Shown: piece by piece, positions 1 to 2,924 of the stretch
Position numbering within the stretch: position 1 is the stretch's first letter
How the letters are laid out: the number at the start of each line of letters is the position of its first letter
Source: Paludibaculum fermentans
Lineage (GTDB): Bacteria; Acidobacteriota; Terriglobia; Bryobacterales; Bryobacteraceae
Direction: 5' to 3'
DNA: 64,000 bases
Assembly (NCBI RefSeq): GCF_015277775.1
Contig: NZ_CP063849.1
Location: 1,612,001 to 1,676,000, forward strand
Notes under the pieces: generated by a model
Database searches by the model: none
What the model saw: only the letters and a program-made list of their open reading frames with translations
Told to the model about the DNA's origin: nothing
Position numbers and translations under genes: made by a program

Positions 1-1863
1 CCTTCCGAAGTCTCCTTCGCCGCCTTCTATTCCGATTGCGAACATGAAGTCCTGCCGGTTCAGGCCGGTCATCGGGTTTGCCTGCTCTACAACCTGATTC
101 ACGAGGGGTCCAAGGGCAAGCGGCAGCTTCTGAAGGCACCGAACTACGAGCCGCAGGTCGCCGATGCGGCGATGATCCTCGAAGCGTATTGGAAGTCACC
201 CGCGGCGCCCTTCAAGATCGCATGGCTCCTGGAACACCACTACAGCCCGGCAGGCCTTGCCTTCGCTTCACTGAAGGGCGCGGACGCCGCCAGAGCGCAA
301 GCGCTGGTGCAAGCGGCGGGCCGCGCGAATTGCGTCGCACATCTTGGGGTCGTCCACATTGTGGAAACGGGGGCCGCCGAGTTGGAGGGCGGGTATTTCC
401 ACGACCAGTGGGACGACGAACAGGAGGATGAGGATGAGCCCGAAGACTTCGAGTCTGTCTGCGTCGATGACACCTGGCAATTCCTGGATGAGTGGCGCGA
501 CACGGAGGACAGGGCCGTTGAGTTTGGCCCCATTCCGCTCAGTGCCGGTGAACTGCTGCCCGCCGGCGCACTCGATAACGAATCTCCGGATGAGAGGCGC
601 CTCACAGAGGCCACCGGCAACGAGGGAGCAAGCTATGAGCTGTCTTATCATCGAGCGGCGCTCGTAATCTGGCCTGCCAAACGCACGATCGACGTGCTGC
701 TGCAAGCGGGCGCCGTCGCGGCCCTCCCGTACTTGAAGCAATTGGTGGCGGAAGGCCAGACAGCCCACGCCAAGGCTGTCGCGGCAGCGCGGCGGATTGT
801 ACGTGCCTGGCCCACCCCCGCACAGCCGCAACCCTACATCCCAGCGGCTCGGGAGCCGCAATCGGCCGACCGAATAACGGTAATCTCCGCACTCGCCCAA
901 CTGAAGGCTCCGGCGCTGCTTGAGCAATTCATAGTCGAGGCGGTCTTCCCCACCTTCGACGGATCGGAAAACACAGTCTTGCTGACAGCGGCCGCCGCAT
1001 TGGGAGCCAGGAAGGCCACCGAGGTCCTGGCGGCCCTGATCAAGATGCGCATCCGCGATCGGCCGGACGAGTGCGCGGAGTTGCTACTCGCGCTTGGCGC
1101 AAGCGATCCCCCGCCATCGTTTCGGAAGGTGGCCAAGGCCGCGCTTGAGGGGCTCGACACGATTGGAACTCGTGGCGTCAATCCCTTTGAGCGAGGGGAT
1201 CAGGGCCGCTACTGGCCAAGGACGGACGGGGTCAAAGCGGGGCATCTGAAGCCGCAATTCGTCACAAACCTGTTCGGGGCGCTGTCACTTTTCGGGGGGC
1301 GGACGCTGCACGACGAAGCTGCAGCCAAGCTCGCCTCGCGCCTGGAGGTCTTCCACCCCGTCACCCTACTCGTCCCTGCGATCGAACAACTTTGCTCGGA
1401 TCAGGATCCCATGCCCCCGGCCGTTGCGCGAGTCATCCAACAACTATGGACCAGCGCCGCGGAATACCTCCTTTTGCGCAGCGAGGTTCCGCCTCCTCCT
1501 CCGACAGACTGGCGTTTTGAGGTCAACCTCCCCTGCACCTGCATGGACTGCCGCGAGCTTCGCGCCTTTGCTCGCGATCCCAGCGAGAGTCTTCATCGTT
1601 TTCGTGTCAACAAGGATCGCCGCCGCCACCTGCATCAGATGATCGACCGGCACCGGCTCGATATGACCCACGTGACCGTGCGCACAGGTTCACCCCAGAC
1701 GCTGGTCTGCACCAAGGACCGCCGGACCTTCAAGGCGCGAATGCAGGAATACCATGACGAGCTCGCCGCCATGCGCAAGCTCTTGAAGCTGGCGCGTCAT
1801 TCCGCCGTGGACGCGGACCTATCGATAAGAATGGAGGCGGCCGTGAAGGCTGGCAGGATTTGA
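1..1863 (+). CDS. 2OG-Fe(II) oxygenase family protein, 5' end outside the window
   Basis: The frame is open from base 1, so the gene starts upstream; the visible part is 620 codons. The first visible residues (DCEHEV, then a Gly-His-Arg about eight residues later, then CLLYNL) match the end of a prolyl-4-hydroxylase-type double-stranded beta-helix: the distal iron-ligand His (visible residue 15) followed ten residues later by an Arg (25) placed to bind 2-oxoglutarate. The remaining ~550 residues are a long alpha-helical, Ala/Leu-rich region. A C-terminal block at about 510-600 has a CxCxxC-like cysteine cluster and basic segments, as in large oxygenase-domain proteins of soil bacteria. The substrate cannot be told. 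The stop overlaps the TTG start of the next gene, so the two are probably co-transcribed. The missing HxD half lies outside the window, which limits certainty. Confidence 0.7.
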   Translation, partial: PSEVSFAAFYSDCEHEVLPVQAGHRVCLLYNLIHEGSKGKRQLLKAPNYEPQVADAAMILEAYWKSPAAPFKIAWLLEHHYSPAGLAFASLKGADAARAQALVQAAGRANCVAHLGVVHIVETGAAELEGGYFHDQWDDEQEDEDEPEDFESVCVDDTWQFLDEWRDTEDRAVEFGPIPLSAGELLPAGALDNESPDERRLTEATGNEGASYELSYHRAALVIWPAKRTIDVLLQAGAVAALPYLKQLVAEGQTAHAKAVAAARRIVRAWPTPAQPQPYIPAAREPQSADRITVISALAQLKAPALLEQFIVEAVFPTFDGSENTVLLTAAAALGARKATEVLAALIKMRIRDRPDECAELLLALGASDPPPSFRKVAKAALEGLDTIGTRGVNPFERGDQGRYWPRTDGVKAGHLKPQFVTNLFGALSLFGGRTLHDEAAAKLASRLEVFHPVTLLVPAIEQLCSDQDPMPPAVARVIQQLWTSAAEYLLLRSEVPPPPPTDWRFEVNLPCTCMDCRELRAFARDPSESLHRFRVNKDRRRHLHQMIDRHRLDMTHVTVRTGSPQTLVCTKDRRTFKARMQEYHDELAAMRKLLKLARHSAVDADLSIRMEAAVKAGRI

Positions 1864-2744
1864 GCTTCTCGACGTCCACGATCACTGCTGGCGCTGAAGT
1901 CGTTCCGTGGCTCGCCTCGGCTGGGCCACTCGCCTACTCACCAATGTCGCCGCCGGAGCGGGACTATTTTTTCCAGTACTCCTGGATCGTTCCTGACATC
2001 TTTAATCCCGGCGTAAACAAACGGCGACACTACTGGTTTGGCAATCCTTCGAAGGACTGTCCACGGGTGAAGCTGCTGTTCAGATTCTGGAACGAGGCCA
2101 GGCGCGGCAATCTGGCCCCTCTCTACTTATCAAACGGGGTGGCCTGCTCATCTGCGGATGTGCTTGCGCCGATCGCCGCTTACCGCCACGCGGACGCCTA
2201 TACCGCCGCCCTTGGAGCCGAACGCCTCATTCTGATCCAACACGGCAGCTACCACCTCGGCGACCTCGAGACTCAGCCATTTGTGGAACAAGGCGAGGCC
2301 GTGCTCTACAGAGGAATTCAGAATGCCGAAACGTACCGGCTCCACCGCCTGACAACGGAGGACATCCGACGGCGATTGTTGGCGGTACACGCCCGAAGCC
2401 TGACGGATTCCGTCGTGTCTTTCAACACCGTGCACTGCAATCTGGTCCGATCCGAAACGACCTTCCTGAACGACCGCAGCTTCGTGTTCAATAGCCATTG
2501 TCGGGAAGCAGGCCTTCAACCGGAAGACCCATGGATTCGTTCGGACCTCTATTCCGGATATGCCCTGGAGGAATGGTGCGCCTCCGGCAAGTTTGGACCC
2601 AACTACGTGAAACTGCGAACACCGCTGAGGAACATTCGCATCACGACTTTCGTGGGCAACGAAACAGAGGTCAAAGTGATCGACCCGAACAAACTCGAGG
2701 TCATCGAAGCGGTCGGCTGCAAGGTGCGCGAAGTATGCACATGA
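1860..2744 (+). CDS. Unrecognised protein with ADP-ribosyltransferase-like motif order
   Basis: 294 residues from a TTG codon that overlaps the stop of the preceding oxygenase gene; an internal Met at residue 29 is an alternative start. I do not recognise the family with confidence. In the C-terminal half the order LYRG (Arg151), SFNT (Ser187) and GNETEV (Glu268, Glu270) resembles the R-S-ExE triad of mono-ADP-ribosyltransferases. The segment after the last motif (VKVIDPNKLEVIE) looks like the strand-turn-strand after the catalytic Glu in that fold. There is no signal peptide or membrane segment. The overlap with the oxygenase gene suggests a joint role, possibly two protein-modifying enzymes. 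The ART reading is an inference from short motifs only. Confidence 0.6.
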   Translation: MSFSTSTITAGAEVVPWLASAGPLAYSPMSPPERDYFFQYSWIVPDIFNPGVNKRRHYWFGNPSKDCPRVKLLFRFWNEARRGNLAPLYLSNGVACSSADVLAPIAAYRHADAYTAALGAERLILIQHGSYHLGDLETQPFVEQGEAVLYRGIQNAETYRLHRLTTEDIRRRLLAVHARSLTDSVVSFNTVHCNLVRSETTFLNDRSFVFNSHCREAGLQPEDPWIRSDLYSGYALEEWCASGKFGPNYVKLRTPLRNIRITTFVGNETEVKVIDPNKLEVIEAVGCKVREVCT

Positions 2745-2775
2745 GGCCTTGACCGGCCCTTGCCGGGACCATCCC

Positions 2776-2806
2776 CCAAAAACAGAAATGCCCTCCGATG
2801 GAGGGC
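2776..2806 (-). terminator. Rho-independent terminator downstream of tRNA-Leu
   Basis: On the minus strand a GC-rich 7-bp stem (GCCCTCC / GGAGGGC, 3-nt loop; 2790-2806) is followed by a T-rich tract, rc of 2778-2789. It lies about 30 nt past the tRNA 3' end and also faces the end of the converging gene at 2744. Confidence 0.7.
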
Positions 2807-2837
2807 GTCTGAATCTCTGTAGTTTGCGATCGTTTTA

Positions 2838-2924
2838 TGGTGCGGATGAGAGGACTTGAACCTCCACACCCTTGCGAGTACTAGAACCTGAATCTAGCGC
2901 GTCTGCCAATTCCGCCACATCCGC
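2838..2924 (-). tRNA. tRNA-Leu (anticodon CAG)
   Basis: Read on the minus strand: 7-bp acceptor stem GCGGATG / CATCCGC, discriminator A (2841) and an encoded CCA (2838-2840). The anticodon stem CTAGA/TCTAG closes the loop TTCAGGT, giving CAG. The long variable arm (class II) and the GGTTCAAGTCC T-arm are present. Total length is 87 nt, normal for a bacterial leucine tRNA. It decodes CUG, a heavily used Leu codon in this GC-rich DNA. Confidence 0.95.

What the first reader, a model, noticed from the sequence alone, without database searches (positions are those of the whole stretch)
1860..2744. Possible ADP-ribosyltransferase translated together with a 2OG oxygenase
An unrecognised protein has Arg151 (LYRG), Ser187 (SFNT) and Glu268/Glu270 (NETEV) in the order of an R-S-ExE ART, and is translated by overlap with a large 2OG-Fe(II) oxygenase-type gene. 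A pair of protein-modifying enzymes in one operon would be unusual and could form a conflict or toxin-like system.
Basis: inference. Interest (0 to 1): 0.6.

Follow-up and report, generated by a model that had tools for sequence, protein, structure and literature searches.

The report
Orphan ART-like enzyme coupled to oxygenase
A previously unclassified bacterial protein, translated together with an iron-dependent oxygenase and lying where related genomes carry toxin-antitoxin genes, looks like a remote member of the enzyme family that cuts NAD to tag other molecules, but that activity is still unproven.

Summary
A 294-aa gene (1860-2744, TTG start overlapping the upstream TGA) has R151, S187 and E268-x-E270 as stated, and the upstream gene is a complete 804-aa 2OG-Fe(II) oxygenase (H141-x-D143, H199, R209). 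The small protein belongs to an orphan family: no credible Pfam, NCBIfam, PHROG, PADLOC or PDB-sequence match. Relatives occur in Acidobacteriota and a few Gammaproteobacteria. R151 and ExE are kept in every relative that covers them, down to about 37% identity.

Two AlphaFold models (pLDDT 64 and 67) put R151 and ExE on core strands. Structural second looks list ADP-ribosyltransferase-superfamily folds first (CNFy domains 4-5, Tpt1/KptA, PARPs, Tne2, TccC3), but Z is at most 5.9 and Foldseek alone finds nothing significant.

The pair recurs in 12 loci, plus two convergent, but neither gene needs the other. A sibling genome carries an AbiEi-type gene in place of the cassette beside tRNA-Leu; others carry BrnT/BrnA or a resolvase there. 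Relatives sit near TOTE, AbiE, PIN, Fic and integrase genes. Best reading: an ART-like conflict enzyme with an oxygenase partner. Fold likely; activity inferred.

The parts
1860..2744 (+). 294-aa orphan-family protein, predicted ART-like enzyme
   Evidence: ORF; relatives and conservation; models
2109..2741 (+). residues 84-294, the part modelled as the ART-like domain
1860..2108 (+). residues 1-83: very conserved N-terminal segment (TST...VPWLA.G.LAY.P..PP..DYFFQYSW) of unknown role
   Evidence: invariant columns; low pLDDT
2310..2312 (+). codon of R151 (LYRG), candidate NAD-binding Arg
   Evidence: invariant in 15 of 15 rows; strand 146-152 in the model
2418..2420 (+). codon of S187 (SFNT), invariant but in a helix: not the STS serine
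2559..2567 (+). Y234-A235-L236, STS-equivalent position (F/Y-S/T-L in divergent relatives)
2661..2669 (+). codons of E268-x-E270 (NETEV), candidate catalytic ExE
   Evidence: ExE in every row that covers it
1..1863 (+). 3' part of the 804-aa 2OG-Fe(II) oxygenase; the gene begins 552 bases before the window (G000:C1:1611449, L002:11449)
2838..2924 (-). tRNA-Leu(CAG), right border of the variable slot
   Evidence: colinearity

Best explanation
The 294-aa protein is a remote, previously unclassified member of the ADP-ribosyltransferase fold superfamily. NAD+ would bind between the strand carrying R151 and the loop and strand carrying E268-x-E270, and the enzyme would either transfer ADP-ribose to a cell component or simply destroy NAD+. 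The invariant N-terminal segment (residues 1-83) would give target or partner binding. In one lineage it is translated by stop/start overlap from the mRNA of a complete 2OG-Fe(II) oxygenase with a probably helical-repeat C-terminal part, which most likely hydroxylates a protein and so primes or restrains the ART-like enzyme or its target. The two genes form a dispensable conflict (defence or toxin-like) cassette in a variable slot beside tRNA-Leu. Shown: gene reality, residue conservation, the recurrent pair, the replaceable locus, TA genes in the surroundings. Supported but not proven: the ART fold. Inferred: NAD use, toxicity, the oxygenase's role.
For: R151 is invariant in 15 rows and ExE in every row covering it, down to about 37% identity. 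Two models with different spans and alignments place R151 on a strand that starts the core and ExE on a late strand after a low-confidence loop. All 8 genomes with the ART-like gene among 151 relatives also hold the oxygenase, which occurs in only 16. Oxygenase directly upstream in 12 loci, convergent in 2. A sibling genome is colinear on both sides but has a DUF6088/AbiEi gene in place of the cassette; others have BrnT/BrnA or a resolvase near the same tRNA-Leu. Relatives lie by AbiEi/AbiEii, TOTE primase, PIN, DUF5615/DUF433, Fic and phage integrases.
Against: pLDDT is 64-67; Foldseek alone gives no match below E 0.5; every Z is under 6, a range in which chance arrangements are common. The STS serine is absent in the window's clade. 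Profile-profile tests against KptA and DarT show nothing, although they also miss the true KptA-DarT relation. Seven genomes with divergent ART-like genes lack the oxygenase, and many oxygenases occur without the ART-like gene, so the pair is not obligate. The TA genes nearby were not compared with a random-gene background.
Confidence: 0.5

Rival explanations
1. The protein has the ART fold but acts as a plain NAD(P)+ glycohydrolase (NADase), causing dormancy or abortive infection without modifying a target.
For: Tne2, an NADase toxin, is among the structural neighbours; the STS position is not conserved; a conflict setting suits NAD depletion.
Against: ExE, typical of transferases acting on proteins, is fully conserved; the long invariant N-terminal segment suggests a specific target or partner.
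Confidence: 0.2
2. The resemblance to ART is an artefact of weak models; the protein is a new fold, for example a substrate-recognition partner of the oxygenase.
For: Low pLDDT, no significant Foldseek hit, no profile match; tight coupling to the oxygenase in one lineage.
Against: ART-superfamily chains fill the top rows for both models; R and ExE are invariant and lie in the expected order on strands; the protein occurs without the oxygenase in seven genomes, so it is not just its partner.
Confidence: 0.22
3. An RNA-processing enzyme related to Tpt1/KptA (2'-phosphotransferase-like) rather than a toxin.
For: Tpt1 is one of the two best structural neighbours.
Against: R instead of the Tpt1 His in the LYHGT position (KptA rows), an ExE that most of those KptA rows lack, a different N-terminal half, and location among TA and mobile genes.
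Confidence: 0.06

Closest known systems
R-S-E ADP-ribosyltransferases (ART superfamily, mono-ADP-ribosyltransferases)
   Same: Conserved Arg in a 'LYRG' strand, conserved ExE on a late strand followed by 'V..IDP'; ART folds lead the structural neighbours.
   Different: No conserved STS serine (A235 in the window); no sequence or profile match; unique N-terminal segment; modest structural scores.
Tpt1/KptA RNA 2'-phosphotransferase
   Same: C-terminal ART-like lobe aligns with residues 147-287, Z 5.6; LYHGT against LYRGI.
   Different: Tpt1 has His at the Arg position and a different N-terminal half; other genome setting.
DarT (DarTG toxin-antitoxin)
   Same: ART-fold conflict enzymes; DarT is common in the same families (24 of 101 genomes).
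   Different: No detectable sequence relation; no macrodomain or NADAR antitoxin was noticed beside this gene; partner is an oxygenase.
2OG-Fe(II) oxygenase, Pfam PF13640 (prolyl-hydroxylase-like)
   Same: Upstream gene meets the HxD...H...R signature.
   Different: This is the partner gene; it has a long C-terminal half with HEAT-like repeats (weak match) and a conserved C-x-C-x2-C segment.

Membership tests
R-S-E ADP-ribosyltransferase | Invariant Arg at the first core strand | tested here: met
   R151 in 15 of 15 rows, strand 146-152
R-S-E ADP-ribosyltransferase | Ser of the STS motif on a core strand | tested here: not met
   S187 is helical in both models; the STS-like position 235 is A, S or T. 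Rests on models of modest confidence
R-S-E ADP-ribosyltransferase | Catalytic Glu in ExE/QxE | tested here: met
   ExE in all rows that cover it
R-S-E ADP-ribosyltransferase | ART fold | tested here: inconclusive
   ART-superfamily chains top the VIA lists, Z 3-5.9; Foldseek not significant
R-S-E ADP-ribosyltransferase | NAD+-dependent ADP-ribosylation | not testable with these tools
   needs biochemistry
DarT | Match to Pfam DarT PF14487 | tested here: not met
   no Pfam match of that kind in any of 15 members; own genome negative for PF14487
Tpt1/KptA | Match to Pfam PTS_2-RNA PF01885 | tested here: not met
   no match; own genome negative
2OG-Fe(II) oxygenase (partner gene) | HxD...H iron triad and 2OG-binding Arg | tested here: met
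   H141, D143, H199, R209 conserved in 15 homologues; PF13640 over its cut-off
Type II-like toxin-antitoxin module | Obligate adjacent toxin and antitoxin genes | tested here: not met
   each gene occurs without the other

The most novel reading that the evidence does not exclude
A new ART-superfamily family, with the STS serine replaced, forms with a 2OG-Fe(II) oxygenase a two-enzyme conflict system in which hydroxylation of a shared target licenses or blocks ADP-ribosylation: a toxin controlled through oxygen and 2-oxoglutarate rather than by a binding antitoxin.
Probability: 0.15. Interest if true: 0.8.

Novelty: new variant of a known kind. Interest (0 to 1): 0.5.

Why it matters
The family has no entry in the libraries searched, so genomes carrying it would show only a hypothetical protein. 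If the activity is confirmed, it adds a lineage to the ART superfamily with an altered S motif and pairs it with an oxygenase, which would link NAD-based effectors to a metabolic signal (2-oxoglutarate, oxygen, iron). The tRNA-Leu slot, where sibling species hold different TA modules, gives a compact natural setting for asking what swaps with what.

Tried and rejected
Sequence and profile searches of the protein against Pfam, NCBIfam, PHROGs, PADLOC and PDB: nothing credible (a PADLOC hit PDC-M02B at E 0.026 was seen in 1 of 15 members only and dropped). Phage, plasmid and IMG/VR collections: no relatives. Profile-profile comparison with KptA and DarT: negative, but the positive control KptA-DarT also fails, so the test has no power. 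The idea that the ART-like gene alone is being inactivated, as for a costly toxin, was rejected: the ORF is broken in about 8 loci, but the oxygenase also carries stops or frameshifts in L014, L022, L026 and L030, and MAG errors cannot be excluded. The viral structure library gave no significant match.

Full report
Observation. It is a real gene: relatives at 63-76% identity in other genera show pN/pS of about 0.24-0.32. The frame upstream is the 3' part of an 804-aa gene beginning 552 bases before the window; it matches PF13640 (E 5e-9) and keeps H141-x-D143, H199 and R209 in all 15 homologues compared, including 34%-identity forms. The window's genome is a 9.5 Mb, two-contig assembly; its family includes a MAG filed as Candidatus Sulfopaludibacter (G012, whose 5646-base contig 34 has the same length and match as L018), so it is probably Bryobacteraceae (inference).

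Family. No Pfam, NCBIfam, PHROG, PADLOC or PDB-sequence search gives a credible match. Relatives: 7 of 150 related genomes plus the window's own, 19 loci in GTDB contigs from Acidobacteriota and Gammaproteobacteria, two more from another Acidobacteriota class, none in phage, plasmid or IMG/VR collections. R151 and S187 are invariant in all 15 aligned rows; E268-x-E270 is ExE in every row that reaches it, although the residues around it change (NETEV, GETEV, GEAEV, GESEV, GECEV).

Fold. Model 1 (full length, 13 rows): pLDDT 64, pTM 0.67. Model 2 (residues 84-294, 23 rows including separate pieces of broken copies): pLDDT 67, pTM 0.66. Both put LYRG on a strand, then helices, then a short strand at Y234-A235, a helix, the strand YVKLRTP, a low-confidence loop and the ExE strand, in the order known for ARTs. 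Foldseek against PDB gives no match below E 0.5 for either. The VIA second look is more telling: for model 2 the first nine rows are all ART-superfamily (CNFy domains 4-5, Tpt1, PARP13, PARP15), with PARP10, Tne2 and TccC3 lower; for model 1, IcmQ, CNFy, KptA, TccC3, PARP1 and PARP2 make up about half the list. That CNFy domain 4 and IcmQ are ART-like rests on my own knowledge of those structures. Z values of 3-5.9 are weak singly; the concentration on one superfamily in two models is the evidence. I put the ART-like fold at about 0.7.

The S motif. S187 is invariant, but helical in both models. The strand where ARTs carry STS corresponds to Y234-A235-L236; at position 235 the residue is Ser in L023, L024 and L025, Thr in L027 and L034, and Ala in the window. 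So the family is R-(A/S/T)-ExE, and the strict R-S-E definition is not met on the present models.

Pairing. The oxygenase lies upstream on the same strand in 12 loci (own, L010, L014-L020, L022, L026, L027; overlapping or within about 100 bases except in L017, about 800) and downstream on the opposite strand in two (L030, L036). Among 151 relatives, all 8 genomes with the ART-like gene have the oxygenase and only 8 of the other 143 do; by hand the chance of this under random assignment is about 2e-9, not corrected for relatedness. But seven genomes with divergent ART-like genes lack any close oxygenase, in L021 the two lie on different contigs, and several genomes have the oxygenase alone. The oxygenase is therefore a frequent partner, not an obligate antitoxin.

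Location. The genome of a sibling species (G002) is colinear with the window's genome on both sides (L002 1865-11281 and 14770-15737); between them it has 1.6 kb with a DUF6088/AbiEi gene where the window's genome has the oxygenase and ART-like genes, beside tRNA-Leu(CAG). By the same tRNA, G006 has a BrnT/BrnA pair and G004 a resolvase fragment and an HTH gene. L014, another genus, has the ART-like gene at the same tRNA-Leu and, by sequence inspection, the same kind of downstream genes. Elsewhere, relatives have as neighbours AbiEi/AbiEii and a TOTE primase (L021), TOTE and a PIN-like gene (L015), PIN (L019), DUF433/DUF5615 (L020), Fic plus M78/HTH (L024), Fic and two phage integrases (L025), and an integrase (L016). 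This supports a mobile, conflict-type role; no random-gene background was computed.

Decay. The ART-like frame is broken at different places in about 8 of 19 loci, but the oxygenase is broken too in several, so there is no sign of selection against the ART-like gene alone. The cassette is dispensable.

Mechanism and limits. Most likely: NAD+ held by R151 and ExE, transfer of ADP-ribose (or NAD+ hydrolysis), in a conflict context, with protein hydroxylation by the oxygenase as an extra control in one lineage. Nothing here measures NAD use, toxicity or hydroxylation. Literature searches found no paper describing such a pair, within an open-access library only.

Noticed in passing
L034:2376-2903 (-) and L035:2376-2846 (-): Directly upstream of the divergent ART-like gene lies a 157-176 aa unclassified protein that itself has RLYRG and continues G-x-x-FTD...A..YA...G.VLVLDIP, a pattern reminiscent of small ART-like domains; two ART-like genes may lie side by side there. 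No credible Pfam, NCBIfam, PHROG or PDB hit.
   Followed up: partly
window 2745-2924 and L125, L126, L127: The slot beside tRNA-Leu(CAG) holds different cargo in sibling species: oxygenase plus ART-like gene, DUF6088/AbiEi, BrnT/BrnA, or resolvase remnants.
   Followed up: yes
L054-L062 and others: A wider family of 800-aa 2OG oxygenases with a conserved C-terminal C-x-C-x2-C segment and a G-x-P-x-x-LVCTK-like motif occurs without the ART-like gene; its substrate is unknown.
   Followed up: partly
models of window 1860-2744 against PDB 9k3a_B residues 1418-1603: A cyanophage A4 pre-ejectosome protein is the first Foldseek row for both models and Z 4.0-4.1 in VIA; it may contain an unremarked ART-like domain, or be noise.
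   Followed up: no
L015, L022, L026-L030, L032: Broken copies of the ART-like gene at different positions (one TAG, several frameshifts, one internal deletion); the oxygenase is also broken in some.
   Followed up: partly
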